64,000 nucleotides of DNA from a virus, in IMG/VR virus record IMGVR_UViG_3300001473_000094, positions 1 to 64,000 of that record. One strand, written 5' to 3'. Below, in pieces: positions 1 through 63,239 of the stretch; position 1 is the stretch's first letter; each line of letters begins with the position of its first letter. The notes beneath the pieces were generated by a model. The model was not told the DNA's origin and ran no database searches. It saw only the letters and a list, made by a program, of their open reading frames with translations. Position numbers and translations under genes: made by a program.

Positions 1-216
1 ATGGGCAGACTGCGTATAAAGGTTCCTCCGGGGACCAGGGTTCAGCGCCGCGTTGCGGCCTGGGAGCGGCTGGTTGCGCTTCTTATCGCACTGGCTTGCA
101 GCTTTGGCGCTTTGGTGTCGGTTGCGGCGGGTCAGATGCTTCTGGCGGCCTTTTTCGGCGCGATGGCGCTGGGCGGTTTCCTTACCGCGTTTGAGAAAGT
201 GCGCACGCTGAGTTGA
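1..216 (+). CDS. Small two-helix membrane protein (possibly 5'-truncated)
   Basis: This 71-residue protein has a short basic N-terminal stretch followed by two hydrophobic segments (about residues 22-42 and 45-62), so it is probably an inner-membrane protein with two helices. Its stop overlaps the start of the coupling-protein gene (TTGA overlap), which suggests translational coupling. Short membrane proteins of this kind are common next to type IV coupling genes and may help anchor the ATPase, but I recognise no family. The ATG is the first base of the window, so the true start could lie further upstream. Confidence 0.5.
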   Translation: MGRLRIKVPPGTRVQRRVAAWERLVALLIALACSFGALVSVAAGQMLLAAFFGAMALGGFLTAFEKVRTLS

Positions 217-4887: not shown

Positions 4888-4932
4888 TGGCGCAACGACA
4901 GCCGCAGGCTGGAGGTTGAAATGCGCCATCAC
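4884..4932. repeat. 11-bp inverted repeat between att site and integrase stop
   Basis: GTGATGGCGCA (4884-4894) and TGCGCCATCAC (4922-4932) are perfect inverted copies separated by 27 nt. The loop contains a smaller hairpin, CAGCC-GCA-GGCTG (4900-4912). The repeat lies 12 nt beyond the integrase stop codon. It may be the integrase terminator or a binding site for recombination proteins; no T-run follows the stem on the minus strand. Confidence 0.55.
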
Positions 4933-4944
4933 GTATTGGGACGG

Positions 4945-6003: not shown

Positions 6004-6013
6004 ATGTTTGCTC

Positions 6014-6460
6014 CTACTTCTGTGGTGATGGGTGGTGTAGTCGAACTCTTTCGTTGATGGGGTTGTCGGGATCGTAGGTGGCGTCCCAGTTTTTGGGGAG
6101 GCCACCAGAGACGGTTTCATAGACATCGTCTGAGACGCGGCCAAACATGGGCGCGGCCGTCGTGATGGCGGATGCGCGGCGCTTCACACCAAGCTTTCGG
6201 CAGATCATCGCGATGTGCGTCTTCACCGTGGAGGTGGTGACATCAAGACGTTCGGCAATCTCGGAGTTGGGAGCGTCCCGGAGAAGCATTTGGAGAATGG
6301 CATGCTGTTTGGTCGTGAAGATATTGAGCATAGCCACGTCGGCGGGATTGTCGCGCTCAAGGACTTCGGGTGCACTTAGGCGCCCAACCTTTTCTTCTAT
6401 GCGGGCGAGTTGAGCGGACATGTGAGAAAGCATATCCACCAATGTTGAGTTAGCGGTCAT
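6014..6460 (-). CDS. LuxR-family HTH transcription regulator
   Basis: The 148-residue protein has a helical N-terminal section (residues 1-35) and a GerE/LuxR-type helix-turn-helix (about residues 48-100) with the typical segment NSEIAERLDVTTSTVKTHI and a final KLGVKRR. There is no autoinducer-binding or receiver domain. The gene lies directly upstream of the integrase and downstream of a promoter at 6545-6572. It likely controls integrase expression and perhaps the lysis-lysogeny decision, although most phages use Cro/CI-type repressors for that role. Confidence 0.85.
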   Translation of the reverse strand: MTANSTLVDMLSHMSAQLARIEEKVGRLSAPEVLERDNPADVAMLNIFTTKQHAILQMLLRDAPNSEIAERLDVTTSTVKTHIAMICRKLGVKRRASAITTAAPMFGRVSDDVYETVSGGLPKNWDATYDPDNPINERVRLHHPSPQK

Positions 6461-6572: not shown

Positions 6573-6663
6573 GTGTAGTGATTTATCATCTGGCCAACGA
6601 AAAGGTGGGCCATGGGATGATGTGAAACAGACTCAGGGAGTGTCGTAGGGAGAGACGCAGAAG

Positions 6664-17815: not shown

Positions 17816-20800
17816 CTATTCGAAGCCCCCGTCCTCGAAGCCTCCACCCTCGAAGGCTGAAGAGCGCGATCCTCTTCCTCGCTTTCCTGCTGGTGCCAGC
17901 TTCTCAACGATCATGTCCCGGATACCACGTTGGCCACCAAGAACGGGGATGCGCTGGAAGATTTCGCGAGTGGCCTGACGTTCAGGGAAGGTCTTCTCAC
18001 CGGCGCCGAGACCAGCAAAGCCACCACCTTTTTCGTCCAGCGCGCCTTGCAGGACGTGCATGCCGGAGATAGCCGTTCCAGCCGAGGGGCCGAACACAAC
18101 GCTCATCATACGAGACACACCATACTGGCCGTTTTCGGCTTGCTGCGCAGTGTCTGTCAGCATCGAGGCAAAGAGGCCAAGTCCAGCGGCCGTCGAGAAT
18201 CCAGAGATCAGTTGGCCGGCTGCGGCGTCGAGCGTCTCACGGTCGGCAATGTTTTCGAGAAGACCAAAGCCCTGCTCATAGGTGTCGTCCATGAGAGGAA
18301 ACTCGCGCAGTATCTTGCTCATGGACCGGTCGCCCGGCGCGCGCTCATTTCCTTCTTCGCCGCCACGCGCTCGGATGTTGTCGTGAAGGAAGTTCACGCC
18401 GATCCCCATCATGGGAAGAAGGCTCAGGAGATACATGGCCCGGTTGGTGTTTCCGGTTCCACTGATATCGCTCAGGTCCAGGGGTCGTCCCTTAAGGTCG
18501 TTGATGGCCAAGCGAATGTCATCGTAAAGAACCTCCTTGGCCATGCGCTGCATCATCAGGGGGAAGCTCTTGAGCTGAAAGATGACGGCACCCCATGGCA
18601 TCTGAGCCCACTGCGGAATCTGATCCGGGTTGGGAGAGAAGACGGCGTCATCGACAAAGCGGGTCATTCCGATGCGGACTGCATCGCTGCCGGGGACAGT
18701 GCCATCAAGGTCAGCTTGCGAAATCAGTTGGCCACCACGGTCGCCACCGCCAGCACGGTCTTCAAGACCGTATCGTTTCAGGAAGCGCCAGTGGCGTTTG
18801 AACGTTGCGCTCTGTCGTGCGAGCGGACGAGAGGGATCAAAGAACCGGGTGTTGTTGGTCTTCATGATCGAAGTGTTGAGAGCCTCGAACGCAACACCAC
18901 TGGCCAAGCCCCGCATCTCGTCTGTCCATGGCGTCAAACCGATGGCGTTGAAGAAGGCTGACGACAGGCGGTTGGCCGGCGTGCCGTTCATGTAGGTCAT
19001 GCGGTTATGCAGAAGCGACTCTGACGCTGTCCCGATATTCTTCATGGCCTGACGGTAGTCCGGATCAGACATGTAGGAGGCCCATGCCTTCATGGCCGAC
19101 CTGAGTTCACCCGAGCGAACGATTGGGAGCATCGAGTCTCCCAGCGAGGAGATCACCGTGTAGCCAAGGAGTGTGACCGAATTGAAGGTACGGAGGGCTT
19201 TGGACGCTTCAACGCCAAGGGTGTTCGCGTCTCGAAGCGGACGGCGAGAAGCTACCTTCATCATGTTGTTGATGAAGTTCATGTCGCTCATCGTCAGCTT
19301 GCCCTTGGCCTCGCCACCCGTGTCTTTCAGGCCGTCAATGATGGCATCCACTCGGCGCTGATAGACAATGGAAGGACCGCCTCCCTTGCGGGCGTCAGGC
19401 ACGGCCATCGATAGGAGGTGGGCGCGAGCAGCTTTTTCACCAGATGCTTTGAAGATTGCAACGACATCGTCTGCCGCTTGCATTGCTCGACCTGGCGCCT
19501 CCTCGAAGGGCATAGGAAACTCTTCGATCATGGCACGCTCAACCATGCCGCCATCGGCATCGAAGACGAAGTCCTTGTGTTCCTGCGTGCGGCGACGAGA
19601 CAACAGCTCTGCGATACCCTCGCGACCCTTGGTGACGACGGCCATGTAGTCGGAGAAGCCGTGATTTCGGTGGCCAAATTTGTGAGCGAGTGACAGCCGA
19701 TGCGAAGCTTGGTCGACATACTTCACGAGGTAGCTTTCGAGATCGGACTCCAAGAAGGGCCGGAGATCAGCAAGTGCCTCCGGATGCCGATCAAGTTCGA
19801 TCTTTCGGGATGCGTCGATGTTTTCGGCGGCGCCTGAATAGGACTGGCCGAAGTCATCATTGAAGAGAGCCTCGCCAGCCTCATCAGAAAGTGTCCGATA
19901 GACGTTCATAGCACGCGCCTTCAGCGTGTCTTCATCGACGGCTCGACCCGCTTTGGTCGCTTCGATGCGGTAGTACTTGACGAGTGCGTCTTGGAACTTC
20001 TGGGGGTCTCGGCGAATGGCCATCGACGACCAAATCTGCGGAAAATAATTGGGGCCGCGCGATCCCATCATGACGCCCGCATCGGTAAGGTCAAAGAAGA
20101 TTTGGCCCATCGTGTCCCGGATGGACTTCAGGGCCTTGGCCTCGTCGGCCGATAGGCGAGCGGCCAAACGCGGGTTGGAAGGCTCCTGAAGAGCACGCAG
20201 TATGCGGTCCCAGCTTTCGACCTTATGGTCGCCTTTAAGAGGATTGGCGTCTGTAAGCCAACGCCTGCCAGGGCTCGGGGCGTCGGAAAGGCTACGGATC
20301 ATGGCCAGGGGGCCGGGCTTGGACTTCGATCCAAAAAGACGACGCGCAAAATCCTGGGACACGTTTGGCCAGTGGGTCTGGAAGAAGTCGGCAAGTTGGT
20401 TAAGTCCGCCGGAGCGAAGCACCTGCGAGTTCAGGCCGAACCATTTGTGGCGAAGCCTAATGCCTTGTGACAGGTCCTCGCCGGTAGGCTTTCTGTTCCG
20501 ACCAAATCGCAGCAGCCAGTTGACCGTACCCTGATCAGGGGCGGACTTTGCAATCTTGTACGATGGCGGAGCGCTGAAGGTGGACAGCGAAGTCGAAGAC
20601 GCCAAAAGGTGGGATGTCATCGTGTGGCCAAGTTCACCGACTGCGCCCTCTTCGGAGAGAGCTGGAGCGTGGAACAGGTTCGGCGAACTGAAATCCTCGA
20701 TGGGCTTGGTCGGGGAGAATGTCTTCGTAACATAGCCCTGCGCGTCCACCATCGAAGCGAATCCCATCGTGGAAACCACGTCAGATGGATCGAGGTTTTT

Positions 20801-23800
20801 TGAACGGCCAACCGAGGCGAAGGCACTGAAGAGCTGTGCATTGGTCATGCCGGGCCGGACTAGGCCGACGACCTGATCCAAGGCTTCTTCCCACTGAGCG
20901 TCGAGGTCGCCATCATCAAGGGCTTCTCGGACGCCAGTGAAGAAGGAGTTGAGCGAAAGCTCGTTTTGTACCTCGGCCATCTGGAAAGCCGTGTTGGAGG
21001 ACTTGCCCGACTTGATGGCCACAACAGAAAAGCGCGGTGGCTCAACCGCGTCCGAGAGGGTTGTCAGGTGATGGTCGAGAGCTGCGCGGCTGGCCTGCCG
21101 CTCAGTCTCCGTTCCACGGTTCAGGTGATCGAGAAGCCGGTTGGCCGTTTCGACGGTATCGCGAATGACGGGGTCGTCGGCGTGGCCATCGAGAACGAGG
21201 CGGAGATAGGGCCGAATGTAGTCGATGGCTGAGCGTGCGATGTTGCCCTCGCTGTCGACGAGAGCGACATCGTCAAAGCCTTCTCTGGCCATAGCGTCTG
21301 CGGACGCACCGGCACGCGCAATGCCGGAGGAACCGGTCGGGACCTCAGCCGCCTCCAAGAAGGTCATGTTGGAGAGTGGCGAGCTGCCGGGCTGAATACC
21401 CTCTGCCCTTTCGAACATGTCGTTGAAGTAGGTGAGGCGAGCCATTGCGTTGCGGGCGTGCTTGCCTCGCACGAGACCGTTCACAAGGTATCCCGCTCTG
21501 TCCAGAAGCTCGCTGGCAAAGGGGCGAATGGAAGGGTCGATGTCGATGCCGCCCGTCGGGTCGAGTATGGCCTCAAGAAGCTCGGCCGCATCGTCTTGGT
21601 CGAAGCCGTTCTCCGATGCCCGGCGAAGAAGTCGAGGCTCTGTGTCGAACAGAACATTCGAGATGTCCTTGGCCAAGCCGTGCGGTGGTTCGGCGCCGGT
21701 CAGTTTGGCGCTGATGGTACGAATGGTACGGCGAAGCCCCTGCCATTCCTCGGTGTTTGGCGTGAACATGGGGCCGACCGGGGCATCATTCGCACGCGGA
21801 TCGGCAATTCGGGCAAGCCGGTACGCCAGCGTTCGGCCGACATATTCCCCGTCGCGCTTGCGATGGAATTGGACTGACAGGAGGTCCTTCATCTGAGGCG
21901 TGGTAGATGCGGGAATGCCGGCCTCTGCCATTGTACCGATGCCTTCCTCCAGCTCCCGGCGAACTGCGAGGTTGACGGTGGGAGATACGGGGGAAAGGCG
22001 GACCTGATCGGGGCGCACACCGGCAACGTCAGCATCTACCGTCGGGTCGCCCGACAAAAGCTTGTAGCGGATTTGTCGAATCCCCTTTGCCGCCTCTTCC
22101 GGCGGGTTTGCCTTGATGCCCTCGACGCTTTGAGGGGCTTTGAAGTCAATGGCCAAAATCTCATCGGCAACCTGAGGCTCACCGGTTTGCGCGAAACGAT
22201 CGATAAGCTGTGCGGCATCGACGGTCTTGGGGGACGCGGCGACCGGAGTGTAGCCGCGTACTTGTTCTATGCCCGCAAGCCGCTCTTTGGCTTTGGCGTA
22301 TGCCTGCCTCTTGAGTTCTTCGTGAATGTCTCTCTTGACCTTGGCCACTGACGCCACGTTCTCGCGCCGTGCCCGCTCCGCCTGAGAGCGTGACTTTGCG
22401 GCCCTATGCCGCCGGGTGAGCTTATCCATCTCCGCGTCATCGGTAATGACCTTCACTTGGCCATTGTTTCGCGAGCGGATGACGATGCCTTTCGAGCCGT
22501 CGCTTTCTGCGATCAGGTCAGTGATCGTCCAGTCCATGCGTTTTTCGTTTGCAGGGATGGCTGCGGCACCCTTGGTGTATCGGAGTTGGTCGCCAACAAT
22601 CAGGTTGCTGAAGCGGCCAAGTGCCAGCTCCGGGACTCGCGTTCCTTCGACCTCGCGCGCCAGGTCAACGCCACGAACTGGAAGGACACCGCTCTCGGTG
22701 AATGATGTGTTGATCGCCGTCTGCATGTCGTCGAGCAGTTTGGCCAGTCCCGTCTCTGTGTCGTCTCCACCCGTGTAGGCTTTGCGGAGGACCTCCATCC
22801 GGGCTTCGTTCGGAACGTAAGCTCCGCCGGCATCGGCAATGTCTGCGGCAGATGCGGCGCTGATCGCGTCAACGCTGTCGTTACTCAGATCGACCGAGTC
22901 AAAATCCTTTCCGGCATGGGCGCGGTTCAGGCGTCGAAGAACCTTCTTGGCACGCGCAATGATGGCGTATGGGCTGTCTTCGAACGGAGCGAGGGCACCA
23001 CCATCGAGGCGAGAGAGCATATCGAGCTTTTCACCCTTCGCCTTGGCCACGCGGCGGAGATAAGCTTGGCGCTCTTGGCCGGTAAACGCCTTGCCGACGA
23101 TGAGCTGATGCGTTGCTCGGTATGCGTCCTCAAATAGCTCCGCACTTCCTGTGTCGTTCGCCGATTCCCACAGACGACGAACATCAGAGACATCGTCATA
23201 GACGCTCTTGTAGTAGCCGATCTGCCGGCCGCGAGATGGATCGCCGAGGGCCTTCAGGTCCTTGATGCCCATCTCGTAGTAGGGGAGGCGGAAATCTACG
23301 CGGGCAGGCACGTCTGCCTGCCCGCTGTCGAGTCCAACAGACACGTCAGCATCCGGCCCCCTCAAGTCGGGCGACGTGTTCGTCAGGGACTCAACGCGGG
23401 CCGCGCCATTCTTGATGGCGGCAGCATCGTCGGCGATTCTCTCGACTTGCTCGGTCGGCAGGACCTTGGCAAAGAGGCGCTCGACCTCGGGGTCGATGGC
23501 GGTAGAGCGGCCAAGGAGTGTGTCGAAAAGACCTTTGATGTATTTGGCAAACCTCTGCCAAATGGCAGGTGCCTGGGCCTCCGGGATTTGGCCAGTGGCC
23601 CAGCGAGCAAACATCTCAGCGAAAAGCTCTGCGGGGCTGTCAAAATACTCGCGAGCCTGTTTGGCCAGAGAGCCTTCACCGGTAACTCCAAGCACCTTAC
23701 CGACGTCTTCACGCGAATGGACATTGTCAGCCATCCAGCCCCAGAACTCCGCACGGTCTTTCGATCCGAGGAAGTTGAGATGTGCCCAATGGCCGACCTC

Positions 23801-26800
23801 GTGAAAGAAGGTGTGGTGGACCGGAGTAATCTTTGATCTGGCTGTTCCGTCGGCAACCTTCTGGCCGATGAAGATCGTGCCCAGATCGGCGTCGTAGCTG
23901 GCAGGAGACAGGCTGTCTGCGCCAGCTTTGCTCCCGAGCGCAACTTGGGGGGCCTCTCCATTGGCCAAGCGGTTGACGAGGGCCACCATCGGTTCAACAT
24001 CTGAGATGGGCAGTTTGGCAAAGACGGTGTGGATTTGCTCAATGGCTTCATCCCGAACAGCCATTGGTGCGCGAATGCCATATGGCGCCACCTCGGCTTC
24101 GATCTCCGAGATTGCCCTCATGATCTGGTACGTGTTGTTGTCTGTCGCGCTGACAGGCAGGCGCTGCATGGCAAGCTCAAGATTGGAGAGGTCGCGGAAC
24201 GTGAAGCTCTCGTCGAGCGGCCTGAGGGCGGCGCCTCGATTTGGCGTTTGGGCAAGTTTGCTGTTTAGGTCAGAAACCAATTCGGCCAAACGAGGCGAGC
24301 CCTGCGTGGATGCGATGGCATCAGCGACATCGTCCAGATCAACAGGGCGCTCACGACCAGCGCCTTCCAGAGCTTTCCCTGAACTGCCGGGCTTTGCCTT
24401 CCCGTCGATGGGGAGGCCCTTCTGTTTGCGGTAGCCAATCTCATTTCGTTCGACCGAGTCGGGAAGATACTCGTACTCCCACTCATCGATCTTGCGCGTT
24501 CCGAAGATATCGCGAGTCGACTTGCCGGCCTCAACCTGTGCCCGGCTTGGCGCGATGACGCGACCGGTCTTCGGGTTGTGGAAGAACAGGACCTGATCGC
24601 CCTTGGTCAGAGGAGGCAGGTTGCCCAGAGGTTGCGCGGAAGGAGATGCCTTGAAGAATGAGGCGAGCGCTTCGAGCAGATCATCGAAAGGTACGCTCTC
24701 ATCATCAAGAAGCGTGTCAATGTCGGGGGACTTGGCGGCGGGCGCAGAGTTGGACGAGGACGACTTCAGGGCTGCCGCAACATCGGACAGAGACCCTCCT
24801 TCAGAGGGCTGTGCACTGGAAGCCTGCCTAGACCGTGTGGGTTTGGAGGAGGAGAGCTTTGCCATTTCGACAAGGCTGACCAACTCTTCGGGCATCGCGG
24901 CGCCCTTTGGGATTTTCAGGCCCCCTTCAGCGTAAGCGCCTCGCCAGTCGGCATAGACCTTTCCCGAACGACCAGACACGAAGAGGACATCATCTCTCTT
25001 GGGCTTGGCCGCTGAATCGACCACAGCAACCCGGCCATTGCTGAGGAAGGGTTGAATAGACGAAACCAGAGGATCACGCTGAAGTCCTCGAAGCATGGCT
25101 GCGGAAGGAGCGTCACCAGCCTCGGCGGCTGCTGCCATCTGATCGATGAGCTGCTTTCGCCTTTTGCGAGCGTCTGTTCCGCCTTCGGCGTAGGCGACAG
25201 CGCTGCGCGCGCGCGCCTGCGCCTCGGCCAAGCTGAAGCGGCTGGGGTCAGGGACCTCGCCGGTGATCGAATACTCCGCATCAGTCTCCGGGTTGAACGT
25301 TCGACCGCGACGCAAGAGGGATTGGATACGCACGCCAGGAAGGAGCTTGCCCTCCTCGTCCACCATCGGAGAAGCCTGATCGACGATCCGGCCAGACTTG
25401 GAGGCCATAGGATCGTGGGGGGTGCGTTCGCGCTGATAAGACTGAGATCGTGCGACCAGCTCGTCTTGGAGGTCTCCCAGCCGGCCCTTGAAGCTGGGTG
25501 CATTGAAGATGGTGTTACCGACTTGCGGCATATCGCCGGCTTTCTTGGCCGACGAGAAAACATCGACCATCGCGTCGATAGTGGCCGGGTCGGCCGCCTC
25601 ACCATAGTGCGCCATGGCAGCACGACGGAGAAACTTGGGGTTGTTAAGGAGGGTCGAAAGGTTGGCCTCCGTCAGGCCGCGCTCAGCGAGTTGTGGCTGG
25701 ACCGCTTCAAGAACACTGGCAACCTCGGTCAGGGTGCCGGTGTAGGTTTCCGAGGGACCGTTTGTCTTGGCGTGGGAGACGATATCGCTTTTGCGAATGC
25801 GGCCGTTGGTGCCCGTGCCGGTAACCTCATTGAGATCGATGCCACGACGTTCAGCTTCTTGAACGGCCCACTTACTGGCGTTGACGCCCTTGCGTGTGGA
25901 CTGGGTGACCGGAACCCTTGGCGGAGAAGGGGGTGTTGCCGGCTCTTCGGGCGGTTCGACAATGGCGACCGGTTCGGCAGACGGATCGGCGCCGGAGGCT
26001 TCCGCAGCCCGCTCGGCTTTGATGGCTTCAGCCTCGGCAGCGAGGCGATCATCGACTTGGGTTGAGGTAACCTGTTCGTCAGTCAGGGTTGCCTGTCTAT
26101 CTGGACCAATGGTTTCGTCGGTGCGGGCCGCGAGTGCACCGGTCTCACCGGCGACGACGGCCTCGCCTTGTGCAGTCTTTCGAGCGTCGGCGCGTGCCGC
26201 CTTGGTGCGCTCGGCGAGAGCTGCTCTCTGTGCCGCGCTGTCAATCGCGCCCTCTTCGTTGGCAACGTTGCGGCCTTGGTCAATGATCTGCCGGTTTGTC
26301 GAGCGTTCGAGGACAAAGTTCTCGACATCCTCAGGGGTTCCTCTCTCGACGATGGAAGCCAAACGCGCACGGTCGGACGCGATCTGTCCCATGAGATCGC
26401 GACCCTGAGCGATTTCATCCGGGTTGGGGCTGGCCAAGAGTTCGCGTGCAATGGCCTCTCGACTGGCCAGTTTTTGAGGGTAGCTCTTTGCCTCTTCGAG
26501 CGCCACGATCTCCCGCTGGGTCGTCTCAATCCATTCATCGATCGAGGCCACGGCTTCGGGATTGCTTTCCTCGATGCGGTCCCGCGTCAGATCGGCGAGG
26601 CGTCGGTGAAGAACCTGTAGGTGAGATTGAAGCTGGGTGACGCGACCGGCCAGCTCATCGTCTTGGGCTTTTTGTGCTGCTTCGGCTTCTGTGAGAACGG
26701 GGTCCGCGTTGGTCTCTTGTCCTTCTGCTTCGGCGATCCGCTGACGGAAGAGGTCCGGCTCGATCTGCTGGAGTTCTCGTAGACCTTGGGCACCGGTGTC

Positions 26801-27622
26801 CAGCATGCGGGACACTTCGTCGGTCGTGTAGCCTTTTTCGAGGAGTTGGTTAGCAACGCTGCGGCCGCGCACTGCTCCGACAACACCACCCGCGCCACCG
26901 AAGACGGAGCCGATACCGGTTCCCATGACAGTACCGATAGCTGCGTCTTGGGCCACACGGGCGGCGGACACACCATCAGAAAGGCCGAGGTCTCGGGCAA
27001 GGCGTTGTTCGCCGACTGACTGGATACCTGCACCAACGGCTCCCTCGACTGCGCCCCACTTGGCGCCGGTCATCGCACCACGACTAACCCCTGACATCAG
27101 GGCTTTCCGCCCGGCTCCGGTGACCGCGCCGCGCGCGCCGGCCGCGAAAGGAGCTGCGGCTCCGCCAGACAAAGCTGATACAGCGCCAAGGGCGTAGTTG
27201 ACGGGATCGGTCAGGATGCCCTTGGCGATGGAGGGGAACGCCTCGCCAAAGGATCGGCCATCTTGCTGGAAGATGTTCGGGTGCTGCTGGACGGCGAGAT
27301 GAAGTCGGGCTGCGCGCGAGATTGCGCTTTCACCCTGCGAGTATTTCGCTATGTCGGCAGACGATCCTCTGGCGCCAAAGAATGAGGCGACAGTGTTGAA
27401 GTCCCGGATGTTGGAGTCGTTGAGGGCGAGCCTCTGAAGCTCTTGGTCAGAGCGACCGGTGATTCCGCGCTCTCGGAAGTAGGCACGGAGGTCGGCGACA
27501 TAGCGCGCGTTGACCAGAGGGTTGGCCGGGTCGAAATTCTGATAGATACCGCCATCTTGAGAGGCGGCTGCCGAACGCTGTGCGCGCAGGCGGGTAAGTC
27601 TGTCGCTCAACGGGAACTCCAT
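17816..27622 (-). CDS. Giant polyvalent/internal virion protein (3268 residues) with metallopeptidase
   Basis: The last gene of the late region. Residues 120-270 are Ala/Gly-rich and hydrophobic, resembling membrane-penetrating segments. About 575-620 there is a peripheral-subunit-binding-like domain (AVQEAERRGIDLNEVTGTGTNGRI). A zincin motif HEVGH lies near 1274, with a downstream Glu in SPAELFAEMFARW near 1330. Long helical regions follow, and the last 500 residues contain several hydrophobic segments and a C-terminal FEGGG/FEDGG repeat. This mosaic fits the 'polyvalent' proteins described in phages and conjugative elements, and the position after two helical virion proteins fits a T7 gp16-like ejection protein. 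It probably enters the host with the DNA. I saw no convincing RNA polymerase or transglycosylase motif. Confidence 0.8.
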   Translation of the reverse strand: MEFPLSDRLTRLRAQRSAAASQDGGIYQNFDPANPLVNARYVADLRAYFRERGITGRSDQELQRLALNDSNIRDFNTVASFFGARGSSADIAKYSQGESAISRAARLHLAVQQHPNIFQQDGRSFGEAFPSIAKGILTDPVNYALGAVSALSGGAAAPFAAGARGAVTGAGRKALMSGVSRGAMTGAKWGAVEGAVGAGIQSVGEQRLARDLGLSDGVSAARVAQDAAIGTVMGTGIGSVFGGAGGVVGAVRGRSVANQLLEKGYTTDEVSRMLDTGAQGLRELQQIEPDLFRQRIAEAEGQETNADPVLTEAEAAQKAQDDELAGRVTQLQSHLQVLHRRLADLTRDRIEESNPEAVASIDEWIETTQREIVALEEAKSYPQKLASREAIARELLASPNPDEIAQGRDLMGQIASDRARLASIVERGTPEDVENFVLERSTNRQIIDQGRNVANEEGAIDSAAQRAALAERTKAARADARKTAQGEAVVAGETGALAARTDETIGPDRQATLTDEQVTSTQVDDRLAAEAEAIKAERAAEASGADPSAEPVAIVEPPEEPATPPSPPRVPVTQSTRKGVNASKWAVQEAERRGIDLNEVTGTGTNGRIRKSDIVSHAKTNGPSETYTGTLTEVASVLEAVQPQLAERGLTEANLSTLLNNPKFLRRAAMAHYGEAADPATIDAMVDVFSSAKKAGDMPQVGNTIFNAPSFKGRLGDLQDELVARSQSYQRERTPHDPMASKSGRIVDQASPMVDEEGKLLPGVRIQSLLRRGRTFNPETDAEYSITGEVPDPSRFSLAEAQARARSAVAYAEGGTDARKRRKQLIDQMAAAAEAGDAPSAAMLRGLQRDPLVSSIQPFLSNGRVAVVDSAAKPKRDDVLFVSGRSGKVYADWRGAYAEGGLKIPKGAAMPEELVSLVEMAKLSSSKPTRSRQASSAQPSEGGSLSDVAAALKSSSSNSAPAAKSPDIDTLLDDESVPFDDLLEALASFFKASPSAQPLGNLPPLTKGDQVLFFHNPKTGRVIAPSRAQVEAGKSTRDIFGTRKIDEWEYEYLPDSVERNEIGYRKQKGLPIDGKAKPGSSGKALEGAGRERPVDLDDVADAIASTQGSPRLAELVSDLNSKLAQTPNRGAALRPLDESFTFRDLSNLELAMQRLPVSATDNNTYQIMRAISEIEAEVAPYGIRAPMAVRDEAIEQIHTVFAKLPISDVEPMVALVNRLANGEAPQVALGSKAGADSLSPASYDADLGTIFIGQKVADGTARSKITPVHHTFFHEVGHWAHLNFLGSKDRAEFWGWMADNVHSREDVGKVLGVTGEGSLAKQAREYFDSPAELFAEMFARWATGQIPEAQAPAIWQRFAKYIKGLFDTLLGRSTAIDPEVERLFAKVLPTEQVERIADDAAAIKNGAARVESLTNTSPDLRGPDADVSVGLDSGQADVPARVDFRLPYYEMGIKDLKALGDPSRGRQIGYYKSVYDDVSDVRRLWESANDTGSAELFEDAYRATHQLIVGKAFTGQERQAYLRRVAKAKGEKLDMLSRLDGGALAPFEDSPYAIIARAKKVLRRLNRAHAGKDFDSVDLSNDSVDAISAASAADIADAGGAYVPNEARMEVLRKAYTGGDDTETGLAKLLDDMQTAINTSFTESGVLPVRGVDLAREVEGTRVPELALGRFSNLIVGDQLRYTKGAAAIPANEKRMDWTITDLIAESDGSKGIVIRSRNNGQVKVITDDAEMDKLTRRHRAAKSRSQAERARRENVASVAKVKRDIHEELKRQAYAKAKERLAGIEQVRGYTPVAASPKTVDAAQLIDRFAQTGEPQVADEILAIDFKAPQSVEGIKANPPEEAAKGIRQIRYKLLSGDPTVDADVAGVRPDQVRLSPVSPTVNLAVRRELEEGIGTMAEAGIPASTTPQMKDLLSVQFHRKRDGEYVGRTLAYRLARIADPRANDAPVGPMFTPNTEEWQGLRRTIRTISAKLTGAEPPHGLAKDISNVLFDTEPRLLRRASENGFDQDDAAELLEAILDPTGGIDIDPSIRPFASELLDRAGYLVNGLVRGKHARNAMARLTYFNDMFERAEGIQPGSSPLSNMTFLEAAEVPTGSSGIARAGASADAMAREGFDDVALVDSEGNIARSAIDYIRPYLRLVLDGHADDPVIRDTVETANRLLDHLNRGTETERQASRAALDHHLTTLSDAVEPPRFSVVAIKSGKSSNTAFQMAEVQNELSLNSFFTGVREALDDGDLDAQWEEALDQVVGLVRPGMTNAQLFSAFASVGRSKNLDPSDVVSTMGFASMVDAQGYVTKTFSPTKPIEDFSSPNLFHAPALSEEGAVGELGHTMTSHLLASSTSLSTFSAPPSYKIAKSAPDQGTVNWLLRFGRNRKPTGEDLSQGIRLRHKWFGLNSQVLRSGGLNQLADFFQTHWPNVSQDFARRLFGSKSKPGPLAMIRSLSDAPSPGRRWLTDANPLKGDHKVESWDRILRALQEPSNPRLAARLSADEAKALKSIRDTMGQIFFDLTDAGVMMGSRGPNYFPQIWSSMAIRRDPQKFQDALVKYYRIEATKAGRAVDEDTLKARAMNVYRTLSDEAGEALFNDDFGQSYSGAAENIDASRKIELDRHPEALADLRPFLESDLESYLVKYVDQASHRLSLAHKFGHRNHGFSDYMAVVTKGREGIAELLSRRRTQEHKDFVFDADGGMVERAMIEEFPMPFEEAPGRAMQAADDVVAIFKASGEKAARAHLLSMAVPDARKGGGPSIVYQRRVDAIIDGLKDTGGEAKGKLTMSDMNFINNMMKVASRRPLRDANTLGVEASKALRTFNSVTLLGYTVISSLGDSMLPIVRSGELRSAMKAWASYMSDPDYRQAMKNIGTASESLLHNRMTYMNGTPANRLSSAFFNAIGLTPWTDEMRGLASGVAFEALNTSIMKTNNTRFFDPSRPLARQSATFKRHWRFLKRYGLEDRAGGGDRGGQLISQADLDGTVPGSDAVRIGMTRFVDDAVFSPNPDQIPQWAQMPWGAVIFQLKSFPLMMQRMAKEVLYDDIRLAINDLKGRPLDLSDISGTGNTNRAMYLLSLLPMMGIGVNFLHDNIRARGGEEGNERAPGDRSMSKILREFPLMDDTYEQGFGLLENIADRETLDAAAGQLISGFSTAAGLGLFASMLTDTAQQAENGQYGVSRMMSVVFGPSAGTAISGMHVLQGALDEKGGGFAGLGAGEKTFPERQATREIFQRIPVLGGQRGIRDMIVEKLAPAGKRGRGSRSSAFEGGGFEDGGFE

Positions 27623-47390: not shown

Positions 47391-50033
47391 TCAGTCGCCC
47401 CAACCCCGTCGTCCGGTCACGTCGAGCTGCTTGGCCAGTGAGCGGCCGTAGAGACCTTCGAGCTGCTCGATGGGCTTCTTGGCCAATGAGGCGAGCTGGA
47501 AGTCTGCGAACTGAGCTTCCATCATCTCGGCCGTGATAGAGGTTCTGGAAAGCTCGTAGACGAGGAGCGAGAACGCATCGACCTGATCGTCGAAAGCGGC
47601 GGCCGGGAACTGCTCGATCTCGGCAAGGAAGTCCGGCAGCCACTCCGTGTGCATGTTCGGATTGGTGGAGTTCTTGTGCGGCAGGAAGACGCGGCCGCCC
47701 TCGACCAGCGGAAGGACTGAGGAAAGGTGGGTGACCTTGTCGCCCGGCCAGCGGCGCGCAATCACTGACAGGCCGCTCTCCCGACGCAGCTCTTGGACGA
47801 GTGACTGCCCAGAGGCGTGGTCTTCGACGATGATCGCGCGAAGGCCACGGCCACGCAGGCGGTTGTTGAGGATGATAAGGCGCTGCTTAAGTTCGGGGAG
47901 CTGCCACTTGCCCCGGACCATGTTGAGGAGGTGGATGTCGCCTTTGAGGGTGATGCCGCCGATGGCCAAGGCCGAGTAGTCGTTGCGGGTTCCGGACTTG
48001 TAGGCGGTATCGGCCGCGATGAGGAGCGAGTGGTAACGCTGAAGGAGCGGATCGAAATCCTCAGGGAGCCACTGCCACCATGCGCGCTTGAGCATGTTGC
48101 CGCCCTCGATGAGGGGCTGCTGCTGGTAGAGAGCGGCGAAGTCACGCTCCGAGCGAGACTTCTGTTTGAGGAGGTAGCGGACATCGAAGCGCTCCGGCCA
48201 AAGGGCGCGATACTGGCGCTTCTCCGGCTCTGCGGGATCGGTCGGCAGTTCGGTGAGCCCTTGGTAGTAGACATGGTGCCACTCGCCTGCGGCCCACTCG
48301 GGGAGCTTCATGAGGCGGCCAGCGGGGTCGTCAGGGTGCCACCGCGTCAGGGTCATCAACTGGATGGGTGGCGTGCCGTCCTCTTCCGGTTCGAGGCGCA
48401 TCCACAGCGAGCCGGTGATGAAGTCCCAGACGTTGCGGCGGATGGTGGGGGACTCAGCGTCAGGGCGGGATTTGATAGGGTCGTCGATGATAAGGCAGTT
48501 GTGCGCCAGCACATAAGTCGGATGAGCACCGGGTTCGGCGAAGCCGCCGGTGGGGAAACCGCCAACAAAGAAGTTGGCTGTATCGGCCACTTGAATGTCA
48601 AAGACCGGCTCGCGGCGACGGCCCGAAGCACTGGTGACCATGCAAGGGCCAAGTGGTCCGAGCGATGCACTATGGTGTGGCACCGGCGGCACAAGGAAAT
48701 CAGATTCGTCGCGCAGTTGTTCGACTTGGTCAGATCGATGTGGTGGACATCGTGGGTCGGGGACAGCGCGAGACACAGGAAACACTCGTGGCCGTCGCGC
48801 GCTCTGATTGCCTTGGCCAAAGGGCGCCAGTGTGGCGCGTACTTCTGGCGCGTTGCGCCGTTGCGATGCCGTGGGTTGAACGGCCCGCTCATGCGAAGCG
48901 AATGGAGCTTGCGCGCGCATTCTTTCGAGCAGGTCACCGCATGCCTGTTGAAGGGCTGAAACCGCACCTTGCAGACCGGGCACGTTTTCTCGCGGAGACG
49001 CTGAAGCGTGACGGGCTTGTGCGCGTCCCAGCACGCCTTCGTGCAGTACAGCCGATCTTTGGTGGCGTGGCGTGGGCCGGTAAACTCGTTGCCGCACCCC
49101 TTGCACTGTTTCGTAATCGCCGCGCGCTTGACGTTTCGGGCGCCTCTGCACGCTCTTGAGCACATCGTCTTGCGAACGCTGGGGTAGGGGACGCGGAACG
49201 CCGCCCCACAATGCTGACAGATGCGGTCTCTGCTGCGCGCGTTGGCCTCGGCTAAGACCGATTGGTGAGCTGTACTGTCCACCCGCAAATTCCCTCATCG
49301 GCAGATAAAGCCGCGACTTGATGTCGAAGAGGGGGTGGTCCGACGTTGAGGTCAATTTTACGCCGGTTTGCAGTTTGTAATCAAGGACTTCGGCCATCTG
49401 AGAGCGAGTGGCAACGATCTCTTTGATCACGGTTTCGTTGGTGCTGTGGTCGAACGATACGACCTTGTCTCCGGCGCGGAGCTGGGAGATCGCGCGCGGG
49501 CCGTCCGGGGTGAGGACGAGTGTGGCGGCCGCAAAACAATTGGCCGGACGGCCAGAAGTCGTGCCGTTCAGGCCAAGGGCGTAGTAGGCGCCGCGCTGTT
49601 TCGTCTTCCACGTGTCGGATGCGCGGCTGTCGGTGGACAACCTGAAGTCCGGGAAGACCTGTTTGAAGCGAGGGTTGGTGACAATGGACTTGGTTTCGCC
49701 GCCAAAGTCGGTGGCCAAATCGGAGTTGTATGCTGAGACCATCGTTTTGCGCGTGGCCTTCCGGCCCATCAGGTAGGCAGGAAAGAGAATGGTGCCGTAA
49801 TGCGACTTGGCGTGGCGCGGCGGCATGTTGATCAGGAGGTTGTAGACCGGCTCGCCTGTGGTGGGGTGGACGAGTGCGCGCTTTTCGAGCTGGTCCAGCA
49901 GGTCGATGAAATCGAGCTGAAACTTCGGGAAGGTCCGTCCGGGAAACATGTACTGGATGAACGCCGAGTAGGACGTACTGGCGGCAGCCATCAAGGCGGC
50001 CCTGCGGAGGATTTCCTCTTCTGATTTGGCCAT
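47391..50033 (-). CDS. Large terminase subunit interrupted by an intein
   Basis: The 880-residue frame contains a 533-residue terminase plus a 347-residue intein. N-extein: Walker A-type PPRHAKS (71-77). The intein starts at Cys166 and ends at Asn512, and the C-extein resumes with Cys513 and the Walker B LIIDDP. The C-terminal nuclease has Asp675 (IAADTAYKSG), Asp738 (IIVEDHASG) and the Asp cluster 815-819 (FDDQVDAF). After splicing the protein would be a normal TerL that packages DNA. The region coding residues about 250-465 is also used, in another frame, by an HNH gene. No obvious ribosome-binding site precedes the ATG; the gene is likely coupled to the one upstream. Confidence 0.9.
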   Translation of the reverse strand: MAKSEEEILRRAALMAAASTSYSAFIQYMFPGRTFPKFQLDFIDLLDQLEKRALVHPTTGEPVYNLLINMPPRHAKSHYGTILFPAYLMGRKATRKTMVSAYNSDLATDFGGETKSIVTNPRFKQVFPDFRLSTDSRASDTWKTKQRGAYYALGLNGTTSGRPANCFAAATLVLTPDGPRAISQLRAGDKVVSFDHSTNETVIKEIVATRSQMAEVLDYKLQTGVKLTSTSDHPLFDIKSRLYLPMREFAGGQYSSPIGLSRGQRAQQRPHLSALWGGVPRPLPQRSQDDVLKSVQRRPKRQARGDYETVQGVRQRVYRPTPRHQRSAVLHEGVLGRAQARHASASPRENVPGLQGAVSALQQACGDLLERMRAQAPFASHERAVQPTASQRRNAPEVRATLAPFGQGNQSARRPRVFPVSRAVPDPRCPPHRSDQVEQLRDESDFLVPPVPHHSASLGPLGPCMVTSASGRRREPVFDIQVADTANFFVGGFPTGGFAEPGAHPTYVLAHNCLIIDDPIKSRPDAESPTIRRNVWDFITGSLWMRLEPEEDGTPPIQLMTLTRWHPDDPAGRLMKLPEWAAGEWHHVYYQGLTELPTDPAEPEKRQYRALWPERFDVRYLLKQKSRSERDFAALYQQQPLIEGGNMLKRAWWQWLPEDFDPLLQRYHSLLIAADTAYKSGTRNDYSALAIGGITLKGDIHLLNMVRGKWQLPELKQRLIILNNRLRGRGLRAIIVEDHASGQSLVQELRRESGLSVIARRWPGDKVTHLSSVLPLVEGGRVFLPHKNSTNPNMHTEWLPDFLAEIEQFPAAAFDDQVDAFSLLVYELSRTSITAEMMEAQFADFQLASLAKKPIEQLEGLYGRSLAKQLDVTGRRGWGD
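47407..47419 (-). promoter_or_regulatory. Late motif TNACCGGACGACA, copy B
   Basis: TGACCGGACGACG lies inside the last codons of the terminase gene (read as Thr-Gly-Arg-Arg), 58 nt before the small gene and the portal. Confidence 0.55.
48356..49282 (-). CDS. HNH endonuclease nested in the intein DNA in another frame
   Basis: The frame is shifted +1 relative to terminase/intein. It encodes three zinc modules (CQHCGAAF...CSRAC, CKGCGNEF...CTKAC, CPVCKVRF...CSKEC) followed by an HNH domain (CFLCLAL, VHHIDLTKSNN, NLISLCRRCH). The GTG at 49282 has GAGGG 9 nt upstream. The clear domain ends near 48650, but the frame has no stop until 48356, so about 100 C-terminal residues would be shadow translation. 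In ordinary inteins the endonuclease is in frame with the splicing domain; here it is not. Confidence 0.72.
   Translation of the reverse strand: MDSTAHQSVLAEANARSRDRICQHCGAAFRVPYPSVRKTMCSRACRGARNVKRAAITKQCKGCGNEFTGPRHATKDRLYCTKACWDAHKPVTLQRLREKTCPVCKVRFQPFNRHAVTCSKECARKLHSLRMSGPFNPRHRNGATRQKYAPHWRPLAKAIRARDGHECFLCLALSPTHDVHHIDLTKSNNCATNLISLCRRCHTIVHRSDHLALAWSPVLRAVAASRSLTFKWPIQPTSLLAVSPPAASPNPVLIRLMCWRTTALSSTTLSNPALTLSPPPSAATSGTSSPARCGCASNRKRTARHPSS
48498..49538 (-). mobile_element. Intein in the large terminase
   Basis: The intein begins with Cys (CFAAATLVLTPDG, block A) and has block B TSDHPLF about 70 residues later. The C-terminal blocks are REPVFDIQVADTANFFVGG and YVLAHN, followed by Cys as the first C-extein residue. 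It is 347 residues long and inserted directly before the Walker B strand, a common intein site in terminases. The middle 200 residues in this frame are Arg/Gln/Pro-rich and look like out-of-frame translation of the nested HNH gene. Confidence 0.88.
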
Positions 50034-58522: not shown

Positions 58523-60307
58523 ATGGACTTCGAAGAATACGCATGGCCAAGGGGAGGCGAGGGTGAATTGCTGGAGCAGGCCAGAAACGCTCTGGTCGCC
58601 TCCCTCGCCAATGATTTCATCGAAACGGAGCACGGTCGCAGGCTGGCTCCGCGCGGTGTCAGCCATACCAGACTGGCCAAGGCGATTGCGAACCGGGCCG
58701 TTTATGCCGTCGGCCGTGAGGCGGCCAAGGCTTTTTCGCATGACGGCACGAAAGAGCGGCGCGATGCGATGCGAAAGCTGACGGACGATGCCGCCGTAAT
58801 CACGGAAGAAGAAGCCGCCAAGTGGCATCTGCCCGACGAGTCCGGATGGCCCCTCAGAAAGAGGCTCCGAGGGTCCTGCGTCACCGCGCGCAACAAGCTG
58901 ACACAGAAGCAACTCAAGGCTGCCTGCCTTGGCGTCGTGCACCTGTCCCACATTCGAAGCGATGTCACGGAGTTCGACATAGACGAAATCTACAGCCACA
59001 CGCTCAAGGTGATCGACAGCGTCGAGTCCAAGCTCAAACACGCCCTCAGGCAAACCCTCAATGCCGAGGGAGACGAGTCCACCCCCAAACCCACCACCAC
59101 AGAGGAGACAACCATGGGTGACGCAGCAAAGCTGGCCGGCACGGCCAAAGCCATCGAGGAGAAGATCGCGGGGGTCGACGGGGTTGCCCGTGGCCTGATC
59201 GATCAGAACCTCAAGGGCCTTGGCCTGCCCGACCTCAAGGATATCGGCGACACGGTCAGTGCCTTGGCGATGGCCGTTGCCAGTCGGCCATCTGGCGGCA
59301 TGAAGATCACGCTTGGCGAGGCGATGAAGGAGGCCAAGGCCATTGGCGGAATGCCGGAAGGCAAGTGCGAAATGAAGACAGCGTCGGACGTGTTCGGGTT
59401 GACCGGCAAGGCGGCGGCACCCTTCAAGTTCGACATTCCGGTATGGTCTTGGGACAGTTCTCATCCAGATGTTCCGGAGCCCGATGAGGACTATGAGTTT
59501 CAGCCTCAACTCCTGCTCAATGTGCTGACGGCACTCGTGACCAACCAGCGCCTGTGGATGTACGGCGACACGGGATGCGGCAAGACCACTCTGATCGAAC
59601 AGGCCATGGCCAGGCTGTCTTACCCGGTGATCCGGGTGAACATGGACAGCGAGGTGACCCGCATGGACTTCATCGGCAAGCCCGACATCGTCGTGAAGGG
59701 CGGTCATCCGGTGACCGAGTTCACCGAGGGTGTGCTGCCGAGAGCGATGCAGATGCCCTGCGTCCTGCTGGTCGATGAGATTGATTACATCCAAGCGGAT
59801 GTTGCCTACCTCTTTCAGCCCGTTCTGGAGGGGCGGAACCTGACGCTGCTCGAAGACAATGGTCGTGTCGTGCAGCCGCATCCCGGCTTCCGCATCATGG
59901 CCACGGGGAACACTCAAGGCAACGGCGATGACACTGGTCGCTATCAGGGAGCCAAGCCTCAGTCGGCCGCCTTCCTCGACAGGTTCACGTTGTGGTGCAA
60001 GGCCAACTACATGAAGCAGGCCCAGGTCGAGCGGCTTCTGTCGACGAAGTATCCGGGCCTCGGAACCAAGGCCAAGGTCTTGGCAGCCTATGCTCATGAG
60101 CACTGGAAGGCGTTCTCTGCCGGCGAGGTACTGACGCCACTGAGCCCTCGTGGCCTGCTGTCCTGCGCCATGACCTACTCGATGTTCGGCGGACTCATGA
60201 GTGACAAGGCGGCACTCAACGAGGCCATGAGTGTGGCCTTCATCGATCGGGCAAACCCTGAAGATCAGGCCACCATCAAGGGCCTCATCACACGGGTCGT
60301 TTCGTAG
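58523..60307 (+). CDS. MoxR/CobS-type AAA+ ATPase with N-terminal extension
   Basis: The 594-residue protein has an N-terminal region (about 1-190) with two helical, charged parts of no known family, a short Thr/Pro-rich joint (about 187-196) and a MoxR/CobS-like AAA+ domain (about 310-560): Walker A GDTGCGKT (348-355), Walker B LLVDEID (about 415-421), sensor region ATGNTQGNGDD (about 457-467) and an arginine-finger candidate further on. MoxR ATPases remodel or load metal centres together with VWA partners, and the VWA gene follows. A copy of the CCACCAC leader at 59094-59108 with an in-frame ATG at 59114 suggests a second, shorter product (398 residues) or a past gene fusion. Confidence 0.85.
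   Translation: MDFEEYAWPRGGEGELLEQARNALVASLANDFIETEHGRRLAPRGVSHTRLAKAIANRAVYAVGREAAKAFSHDGTKERRDAMRKLTDDAAVITEEEAAKWHLPDESGWPLRKRLRGSCVTARNKLTQKQLKAACLGVVHLSHIRSDVTEFDIDEIYSHTLKVIDSVESKLKHALRQTLNAEGDESTPKPTTTEETTMGDAAKLAGTAKAIEEKIAGVDGVARGLIDQNLKGLGLPDLKDIGDTVSALAMAVASRPSGGMKITLGEAMKEAKAIGGMPEGKCEMKTASDVFGLTGKAAAPFKFDIPVWSWDSSHPDVPEPDEDYEFQPQLLLNVLTALVTNQRLWMYGDTGCGKTTLIEQAMARLSYPVIRVNMDSEVTRMDFIGKPDIVVKGGHPVTEFTEGVLPRAMQMPCVLLVDEIDYIQADVAYLFQPVLEGRNLTLLEDNGRVVQPHPGFRIMATGNTQGNGDDTGRYQGAKPQSAAFLDRFTLWCKANYMKQAQVERLLSTKYPGLGTKAKVLAAYAHEHWKAFSAGEVLTPLSPRGLLSCAMTYSMFGGLMSDKAALNEAMSVAFIDRANPEDQATIKGLITRVVS
59094..59108 (+). repeat. CCACCAC-type leader inside the AAA+ reading frame
   Basis: CCACCACAGAGGAGA followed by an in-frame ATG at 59114. 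Translated, it gives the Thr-rich joint of the protein. It could be an internal ribosome-binding site. Confidence 0.6.
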
Positions 60308-60337
60308 TTCCGACACGTCCACGGAGCGAGACGATCC

Positions 60338-60445
60338 ACCTGCGGCTGGTGGTCCGCAGGTTGGGAGGACGCCTCGAAAGGCGTCCTCCCTCCTCACCTC
60401 ATTCCATAGGAATGAGGAATCGATGCTCTGCGAAGCAGGGCATCG
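60338..60445 (+). ncRNA. Array of four stem-loops between the AAA+ and VWA genes
   Basis: The 177-nt gap contains four consecutive stems with almost no unpaired spacer: ACCTGCGG-CCGCAGGT (60338-60361), an 11-bp GGGAGGACGCC-GGCGTCCTCCC (60363-60390), CCTCATTCC-ATA-GGAATGAGG (60397-60417) and a 10-bp CGATGCTCTG-CAGGGCATCG (60421-60445). There is no T-run, so it is not a terminator. It may be a structured RNA or an intercistronic processing/stability element; the ncRNA label is a hypothesis. Confidence 0.5.
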
Positions 60446-60464
60446 GAACCACCAACCACACCCA

Positions 60465-60479
60465 CCACCACGGAGAACG
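60465..60479 (+). repeat. CCACCAC-type 5' leader, copy 9
   Basis: CCACCACGGAGAACG, 5 nt before the ATG at 60485, after the stem-loop array. Confidence 0.65.
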
Positions 60480-60484
60480 AAAAC

Positions 60485-62419
60485 ATGACTGACAAGAAGG
60501 ACGAAGACGCCAAGGGCGCCAAGGGCGCCATGAGCGGCGACCTGTTCGAGCACGAGATGGTCACCAACGCCAAGGTGCTTGGCCGCGAGACCGGGATCAA
60601 CGTCGTCATCGGTGGCGACAGGGCCGAGACAGACGGCAAGACGGTGACGCTTCCGTCTGTCGGCAACGCCAATGTGAGCCGCAAGGCGGCCAATGTGGCC
60701 CGAGGCTTTGTCAACCACGAGGCGGCAGGGCTTCGTTACACAAACCCCCATACCCGGCAACGCATGGGGGCAAGCCCGAACCACTCAACGTTCTTCAAGG
60801 CGATGGATAGCGTGCGTGTCGAGCGGCGCTTCTCTGAAACCTACGAGGGCAGTGTTGGCCAGTTCGAGGCAACGACCGATGCGATGATCAAGCGCATCGC
60901 CAAGACGATCAAGTCTGGCGAAGTGCCGGCCAGCAAGAAGGCTGATGTCGTCCCTGCCTTGGCCAGCATGGAGGGTCGGAAGCTGACGGGGCAACACGTC
61001 GACAAAGGGGCGCTCGAAGAGGTCCGAAACTTCGTGGGCAAGGACCTTGCAGACGTGGCCATGCGTGTTGGCGAGGCTGCGAGCAAGGCGAAGTCGACGC
61101 TCGACATCAGCCGGTGGCTGGAGAAGTGGCTCGGCGATGTGGCCCCCGAGACAGAGCAAGAGAGGCGTGAGGAGCGCCGCCGTATGGCCGGTGAGGGCGG
61201 CAGTGGCCTTGGCGAGGGAGACGGCGAAGGCGAAGGCGAAGGGGAGGGCGATGACGGCGAGGGCGATGGCCCCATGGGCAGCGCTCCCTCAATCGGCAGC
61301 GACAAGGGAAGCTGGAAGCCCCCATTGAAGGCGCCGAACCTCTTTAGGACGGTCATGTCCGATGTTGTTGGCGAGGGTCTGCCGGTCGGCACGTCCGGCT
61401 ATCAGTCGGACAAGAGGGACGACCGCGTGTGGGAGGACTTCGAACGCTACATTCTCAATGCAAACCTCGTGTCCCGGAGAAACTACGAAGTCGGGCGTTC
61501 CAGTCCAGACTACAGGAAAACCTATGTCCCCAAAACCAAGCGGGATATTGTTCGGGCCGGCCTGATGAACATCGAGGAAATGCGGCGCGAGCTTGGCTTG
61601 CCAACCCGCAAGATGAAGGGCGCTCTTGAGCGTGGCCTCATCACTGCGCAGCGCCGTGCTTGGCTGCGCGGCCAACAGGAAGGCGTGATCGATCCGAAGC
61701 GCTTGGCCAGCGTGATTACCGGGCAGAACAACTACCGGAGGGTGCGGGCTGAAACCATGAGGGTCGAGGCGGCCGTCCAGCTTGTCATCGACATGAGCGG
61801 CAGCATGAGCGGCGAGAAAGCTGTCGAGGCCATGCGGGCAGCGTTCGTGTTTGCGGATAGCTTGAGCAAGGTGAACGTGCCCATCGAAGTCGTCGGTTTC
61901 TATTCAGACCGGGACCGCCATTCGGGTGCGGGATGGAGTCACCGGGACGGCAACATCGACATGCCCGTCTTTAAGCAGTTTACCGACCCTCTGCGCACCT
62001 CGCTGTGGAAGCTTGGCCTTGTCTCGCCAACGATCCATTGCCGGCAGGGCGGCAACAATGCCGACGGAGACAGCCTGCTCATGGCGTGGCGCCGGCTGCG
62101 CAAGCGTCCCGAGAAGCGCAAGGTAATGATCGTGTTCAGCGATGGTCATCCATCAACGAGCGGATGTGGCGATGAGTACGGCCACCTGCGAAACGTCGTG
62201 CACAACATTACCGCCCAAGGCTGCGAGCCATTCGGTGTGGGCATTATCGATAGCGCGGTTCGCGGGTTCTATCCGGACCACATCGTCATCCGGAACGCCG
62301 AGGAATTGCCGGCCAAGGCCGGGGCATTCCTGCACCAGCTCCTGATGCCAGCCAAGGACAAGCAGAAACGATCGATCAAGGCGATGGGCGGCCGAGCCAG
62401 AGCGATGAAGGCTGCCTGA
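60485..62419 (+). CDS. CobT-like VWA-domain protein
   Basis: The 644-residue protein has an N-terminal region (about 20-235) with an HExx-like segment (VNHEAAGLRY) similar to CobT-type and metallopeptidase-like VWA proteins, a Gly/Glu/Asp-rich linker (about 243-263) and a C-terminal VWA domain (about 430-620) with a MIDAS motif DMSGS (Asp436, Ser438, Ser440) and FSDGHPS further on. In cobaltochelatase and related systems CobT and a CobS-type AAA+ ATPase form one complex; here the MoxR-like gene is directly upstream. The target in a phage is unknown: host metal enzymes, protein complexes or virion assembly are possible. Confidence 0.85.
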   Translation: MTDKKDEDAKGAKGAMSGDLFEHEMVTNAKVLGRETGINVVIGGDRAETDGKTVTLPSVGNANVSRKAANVARGFVNHEAAGLRYTNPHTRQRMGASPNHSTFFKAMDSVRVERRFSETYEGSVGQFEATTDAMIKRIAKTIKSGEVPASKKADVVPALASMEGRKLTGQHVDKGALEEVRNFVGKDLADVAMRVGEAASKAKSTLDISRWLEKWLGDVAPETEQERREERRRMAGEGGSGLGEGDGEGEGEGEGDDGEGDGPMGSAPSIGSDKGSWKPPLKAPNLFRTVMSDVVGEGLPVGTSGYQSDKRDDRVWEDFERYILNANLVSRRNYEVGRSSPDYRKTYVPKTKRDIVRAGLMNIEEMRRELGLPTRKMKGALERGLITAQRRAWLRGQQEGVIDPKRLASVITGQNNYRRVRAETMRVEAAVQLVIDMSGSMSGEKAVEAMRAAFVFADSLSKVNVPIEVVGFYSDRDRHSGAGWSHRDGNIDMPVFKQFTDPLRTSLWKLGLVSPTIHCRQGGNNADGDSLLMAWRRLRKRPEKRKVMIVFSDGHPSTSGCGDEYGHLRNVVHNITAQGCEPFGVGIIDSAVRGFYPDHIVIRNAEELPAKAGAFLHQLLMPAKDKQKRSIKAMGGRARAMKAA

Positions 62420-63185: not shown

Positions 63186-63190
63186 GTCAC

Positions 63191-63213
63191 GCCGGCCAGC
63201 AAAGCTGGCCGGC
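63191..63213 (+). other. Perfect hairpin after the 62598-63185 gene
   Basis: GCCGGCCAGC-AAA-GCTGGCCGGC, a 10-bp stem starting 6 nt after the stop codon. No T-run follows, so it is a weak terminator or an mRNA-end stabiliser. Confidence 0.6.
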
Positions 63214-63225
63214 GCTTCAAATCCA

Positions 63226-63239
63226 CCACCACAGAAAGG
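63226..63239 (+). repeat. CCACCAC-type 5' leader, copy 10
   Basis: CCACCACAGAAAGG, 8 nt before the ATG at 63248. Confidence 0.65.

What the first reader, a model, noticed from the sequence alone, without database searches (positions are those of the whole stretch)
60307..60485. Four tandem stem-loops between the AAA+ and VWA genes
Four different perfect or near-perfect hairpins (8, 11, 9 and 10 bp) fill 108 of 177 intergenic nucleotides with almost no spacer. The sequences are unrelated to each other, so this is not a simple repeat, and none ends in a T-run. Such dense structure points to a functional RNA: an intercistronic regulator of the ATPase/VWA ratio, a processed small RNA, or a packaging or origin signal.
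Basis: seen in the sequence. Interest (0 to 1): 0.62.

Follow-up and report, generated by a model that had tools for sequence, protein, structure and literature searches.

The report
Hairpin cluster between two phage genes
Four strong RNA hairpins packed between two neighbouring genes of an uncultured CRP-810-type phage are real and far beyond chance, but they look like one dense example of a common thing: hairpins in a multi-gene message that most likely set how long each part of the message survives.

Summary
The 177-nt gap between a CobS-like AAA+ gene and a CobT-like VWA gene holds four unrelated stem-loops of 8, 12, 9 and 11 bp; none has a U-tract. None of 1,000 shuffles had more than two such stems; fold z = -6.7. 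The record is a 68-kb virus of the CRP-810 type. In three GC-rich relatives this gap also carries one or two strong hairpins, with unrelated sequences; CRP-810 itself and most relatives have a 2-14 nt gap with only a ribosome-binding site. So it is not a conserved RNA with a fixed fold, and covariation cannot be tested. In these phages hairpins are enriched in gene gaps generally, and wobble positions are overwhelmingly G.U on the coding strand (27 vs 3 A.C), so they act as RNA. In this phage the terminator-like hairpins lie outside the cobS-cobT stretch and the five hairpins inside it lack U-tracts (p about 0.001-0.003). Best reading: a non-terminating intercistronic hairpin cluster that limits mRNA decay and decouples cobS from cobT. 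A leaky terminator is the main rival. Ordinary kind, unusually dense case.

The parts
58523..60307 (+). cobS-like AAA+ ATPase gene (MoxR/dynein-type)
   Evidence: Pfam AAA_5 7e-18, PHROG 249; start codon placed by leader and gene caller
60338..60361 (+). hairpin 1, 8 bp, loop CUGGUGGU; alternatively pairs with the cobT leader
   Evidence: alternative pairing probability about 0.8 in the ensemble
60363..60390 (+). hairpin 2, 12 bp, CGAA loop, dG -24.8
   Evidence: pair probabilities about 1
60397..60417 (+). hairpin 3, 9 bp, 3-nt loop, dG -12.2
60421..60445 (+). hairpin 4, 11 bp with one U.G pair, GAA loop, dG about -18.7
   Evidence: the wobble is a standard pair only in + strand RNA
60446..60484 (+). 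C/A-rich leader with GGAGA ribosome-binding site of cobT; contains CCACCACCACGGAGA at 60462-60476
   Evidence: motif CCACCACCACVGARA: 10 hits in window against 0.7 expected, several just before gene starts
60485..62419 (+). cobT-like VWA gene
   Evidence: Pfam CobT_C 6e-25, CobT 9e-15, VWA
63190..63214 (+). single 11-bp hairpin without U-tract after the next gene of the same run, followed by the same kind of leader (63223-63237)

Best explanation
The four stem-loops are a non-terminating intercistronic hairpin cluster in the cobS-cobT mRNA of a CRP-810-type phage. Transcription runs through them (inferred). Ribosomes that finish cobS are separated from cobT, which is started from its own mostly unstructured C/A-rich leader and ribosome-binding site (shown as sequence, function inferred). 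After an endonuclease cut downstream, the stacked stems stop 3'-to-5' exonucleases, so the cobS segment outlives cobT and the AAA+ ATPase is made in excess over its VWA partner (inferred, in analogy with puf and malE-malF). Hairpins at this place are kept in GC-rich relatives but their sequences turn over, which suits a role that needs only stable stems.
For: Stems far beyond chance. Coding-strand G.U bias in gene-gap hairpins of the four GC-rich phages: 27 G.U to 3 A.C, p = 8e-6, with no bias inside coding sequence (52 to 45). In this phage 8 of 9 hairpins in other same-strand gaps have a U-rich tail, while 0 of 5 in the cobS-cobT stretch do (p = 0.003; 0.0008 without one weak case). The same gap in G001, G002 and G015 has other hairpins, also without a U-tract. 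No sigma-70-like promoter was found in the gap, so cobT seems to depend on read-through. Hairpins 2-4 have pair probabilities near 1. Known precedent: protective structures between cistrons (PMC5927463) and the puf intercistronic hairpin of Rhodobacter (Klug 1987, cited in PMC6238624).
Against: No transcript data. The wobble bias is weaker for hairpins without U-tract taken alone (9 to 2, p = 0.065). Promoters of other sigma factors were not covered. CRP-810 and most relatives run the same gene pair with a 2-14 nt gap and no hairpins, so the cluster is not needed for the pair to work. Published work holds that hairpin clusters can terminate transcription without a U-tract (PMC8355165).
Confidence: 0.45

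Rival explanations
1. The cluster is a leaky terminator or attenuator: several hairpins in a row stop a fraction of RNA polymerases after cobS, so that less cobT is made, perhaps relieved by an antiterminator.
For: Fits the published definition of a hairpin-cluster termination unit: hairpins less than 15 bases apart, first one 31 nt after the stop codon (PMC8355165). Ordinary U-tract terminators are frequent in gaps of this phage.
Against: No U-tract at any of the four stems, unlike nearly all other gap hairpins of this phage. The published units are at operon ends; here a co-directional partner gene starts 39 nt later with no promoter found.
Confidence: 0.3
2. Hairpin 1 is a switch: its GGUGGU stretch either closes the local hairpin or pairs with ACCACC in the cobT leader, shaping translation of cobT.
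For: The predicted best fold (-82.8) beats the four-hairpin form (-71.9) by making this pairing; probability about 0.8; the loop-leader duplex is -11.4 kcal/mol.
Against: Found in 1 of 77 gaps of the four phages; expected 0.07, P = 0.07. Absent from relatives. The ribosome-binding site itself stays mostly free. Local hairpins would form first during transcription.
Confidence: 0.12
3. The palindromes act as DNA: operator, origin, packaging or recombination site.
For: All four are near-perfect inverted repeats, and operator-like palindromes do exist in relatives (G002, TGTCGCA...TGTGACA).
Against: Unique single copies, unrelated to each other; the wobble bias points to the RNA strand; no direct-repeat array or skew break.
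Confidence: 0.08

Closest known systems
Intercistronic protective hairpins (Rhodobacter puf; E. coli malE-malF)
   Same: Stable stems between two co-directional genes, no U-tract, between genes for partner proteins
   Different: Four stems in a row; phage operon; differential decay not shown here
Hairpin-cluster intrinsic termination units (Gupta and Pal 2021, PMC8355165)
   Same: Several hairpins less than 15 bases apart shortly after a stop codon, no U-trail needed
   Different: Lies inside a gene pair, not at an operon end; no read-drop data
CRP-810-type phages (PMC11288001)
   Same: Portal 66 percent identical to CRP-810, cobS-cobT pair, integrase, prim-pol
   Different: CRP-810 has a 12-nt cobS-cobT gap without hairpins

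Membership tests
Rho-independent (intrinsic) terminator | GC-rich hairpin followed by U-tract | tested here: not met
   T count in the 8 nt after each stem: 1, 2, 2, 0
Hairpin-cluster termination unit | Two or more hairpins less than 15 bases apart, near the stop codon | tested here: met
   Spacers 1, 6, 3 nt; first stem 31 nt after stop
Hairpin-cluster termination unit | Position between operons and loss of transcript reads downstream | not testable with these tools
   Next gene is co-directional 39 nt away, no sigma-70-like promoter found; no RNA-seq
Intercistronic mRNA-stabilising hairpin | Stable RNA-strand stem between two genes of one message | tested here: inconclusive
   Position and stability met; RNA strand supported by G.U bias; co-transcription not shown
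Intercistronic mRNA-stabilising hairpin | Unequal decay of the flanking segments | not testable with these tools
   needs a rifampicin time course
Rfam RNA families | Match above gathering score | tested here: not met
REP/REPIN-type repeats | Same palindrome repeated in the genome | tested here: not met
   only one copy in the record
N4-like hairpin promoters | Giant virion RNA polymerase encoded by the phage | tested here: not met
   3268-aa protein 17816-27622 has no RNA polymerase match by sequence
CRP-810-type phages | Related portal with cobS-cobT pair, prim-pol and integrase | tested here: met
   family description PMC11288001

The most novel reading that the evidence does not exclude
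The cluster is a phage-specific RNA switch: hairpin 1 alternates between a local stem and pairing with the C/A-rich leader of cobT, closing hairpins 2-4 into a multi-branch domain that couples cobT translation to the state of the cobS message.
Probability: 0.1. Interest if true: 0.5.

Novelty: new member of a known kind. Interest (0 to 1): 0.3.

Why it matters
CobS-CobT-like pairs are near-universal in this widespread phage family, yet their role is unknown, and no CobN subunit was found in the four records searched. A decoupling element between the two genes hints that the ATPase and its VWA partner are wanted in different amounts, as in MoxR-VWA machines, and gives a simple handle to test it. 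It also shows that hairpins can be kept at a place while their sequence changes completely, which covariation searches would miss.

Tried and rejected
Covariation: not possible, since gaps of relatives do not align and no strain-level relative covering the gap was found (the contig with identical portal, L124, gave no cobS match and no DNA match to this region). Rfam at both thresholds: nothing above gathering score. Exact hairpin 2 in viral contigs: none. Host genomes: two scans for cobS relatives found none. N4-type hairpin promoters: no RNA polymerase signature in the giant virion protein. Origin: no GC-skew break. Anti-leader pairing as a general rule: only this gap. Test of the internal cobS start by synonymous shuffling: inconclusive, because the protein sequence there already yields the SD-like bases.

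Full report
Observation. The gap 60308-60484 between the AAA+ and VWA genes contains four stem-loops at 60338-60361, 60363-60390, 60397-60417 and 60421-60445, of 8, 12, 9 and 11 bp, separated by 1, 6 and 3 nt. None of 1,000 dinucleotide shuffles of the gap held more than two such hairpins; four are present. The fold has z = -6.66. Across the genome only 4 of 2,726 overlapping 177-nt windows hold four, about the number expected if all of them cover this gap. The four sequences are not repeats of each other or of anything else in the record. No U-tract follows any stem.

What the neighbourhood is. The window is 64 kb of a 68,309-base virus record. The flanking genes are CobS-like (AAA_5) and CobT-like (CobT_C, VWA). 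The portal protein is 66% identical to that of Roseobacter phage CRP-810, a temperate phage that defines a family in which almost all members carry cobS and cobT of uncertain function (PMC11288001). The window phage also has prim-pol, integrases and SU10-type portal and capsid. No CobN large subunit was found in it or in three relatives, so a MoxR-VWA-type machine is a better guess than a cobalt chelatase (inference).

Relatives. Scans gave three GC-rich relatives: G001 (portal 74%), G002 (61%) and G015 (63%). After cobS, G002 has a 103-nt gap with a 10-bp and an 8-bp hairpin; G001 has an 8-bp hairpin nested in an outer stem before an inserted small gene; G015 has a 100-nt gap with GC-rich stems that include G.U pairs. 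None resembles the window's stems in sequence. CRP-810 and most other relatives have only 2-14 nt with a ribosome-binding site; a few carry short inserted ORFs instead. So the stems are lineage-specific, and where they occur only the architecture recurs: stop codon, hairpin(s) without U-tract, leader, start codon.

General pattern. In the four GC-rich phages many same-strand gaps of 40-300 nt carry a hairpin, at 2-9 per kb against about 1-2 per kb in coding sequence. The four-hairpin gap is matched only by one other gap, in G015 (L226:2995-3207, minus strand), with four stems of other sequence. Non-Watson-Crick positions in gap stems are G.U on the coding strand 27 times and A.C 3 times (p = 8e-6); within coding sequence the count is 52 to 45. 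This says the stems are read as RNA from the coding strand. The bias is driven largely by U-tract terminators; for hairpins without U-tract it is 9 to 2 (p = 0.065). Six further G.U positions in operator-like palindromes were left out of the 27.

Terminator or not. In the window phage, 8 of 9 hairpins in other same-strand gaps have at least 4 T in the next 8 bases, while none of the five in the cobS-cobT stretch does (p = 0.003, or 0.0008 without one weak case). The other three phages show no U-tract in the cobS-cobT gap either. No sigma-70-like promoter lies in the gap, with the caveat that other promoter types are not covered. This favours read-through. A published RNA-seq survey, however, reports that hairpin clusters without U-trails often coincide with transcript ends (PMC8355165), so a leaky terminator remains the main rival.

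Mechanism. Structures between cistrons that block 3'-to-5' exonucleases and so raise the upstream product are established in E. coli (PMC5927463) and for the puf operon of Rhodobacter (Klug 1987, cited in PMC6238624). The hosts named for CRP-810-type phages are alphaproteobacteria (PMC11288001). I therefore infer that the cluster protects the cobS segment and separates cobS from cobT translation. Shown: position, stability, strand bias, lack of U-tract. Inferred: co-transcription, decay difference, protein ratio.

A possible extra. The lowest-energy fold opens hairpin 1 and pairs its GGUGGU with ACCACC in the cobT leader (probability about 0.8). This occurs in only one of 77 gaps (P = 0.07) and not in relatives; it may be a by-product of the C/A-rich leader.

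Verdict. A real, unusually dense example of a known kind of element; no evidence for a conserved new RNA. Interest 0.3.

Noticed in passing
window 59091-59116, inside cobS: A C/A-rich leader plus SD and ATG (CCACCACCACAGAGGAGACAACCATG) lies in frame inside cobS, like the leaders of real gene starts. Similar internal leader+SD+ATG sites occur in the upstream part of cobS in CRP-810 (L003), L006, L010, L012, L013, L020, L223, L225 and L209, suggesting a long and a short CobS from one ORF. A synonymous-codon control was inconclusive.
   Followed up: partly
window 54730, 58498, 60462, 63223 (and degenerate copies): A repeated C/A-rich translation leader CCACCACCACRGARA sits just upstream of several start codons (10 hits, 0.7 expected) and similar leaders occur in GC-rich relatives.
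   Followed up: partly
window 47391-50033: The large terminase (880 aa) appears to be split by an intein-like insert: terminase matches at both ends and Hint domains from about residue 164.
   Followed up: no
L226:2995-3207 (minus strand), relative G015: A second gap with four tandem hairpins, two of them sharing CCCGTCCCCCGGACGGG, between two small genes downstream of prim-pol.
   Followed up: partly
L224:4782-4804, 6615-6643, 13130-13156; L225:5003-5032: Operator-like palindrome GGTGTCGCA-N-TGTGACATCC repeated in gaps of relative G002; a similar TGTCGCA/TGCGACA palindrome in G015. Probably a repressor site.
   Followed up: no
window 213-1907 and 3202-6144: A VirD4/TraG-like coupling protein gene, a large serine recombinase and a tyrosine integrase lie together at the left end of the record, perhaps another mobile element or host flank.
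   Followed up: no
window 17816-27622: A 3268-aa virion protein with a short E3-binding-like domain of the pyruvate dehydrogenase type at residues 590-614.
   Followed up: no
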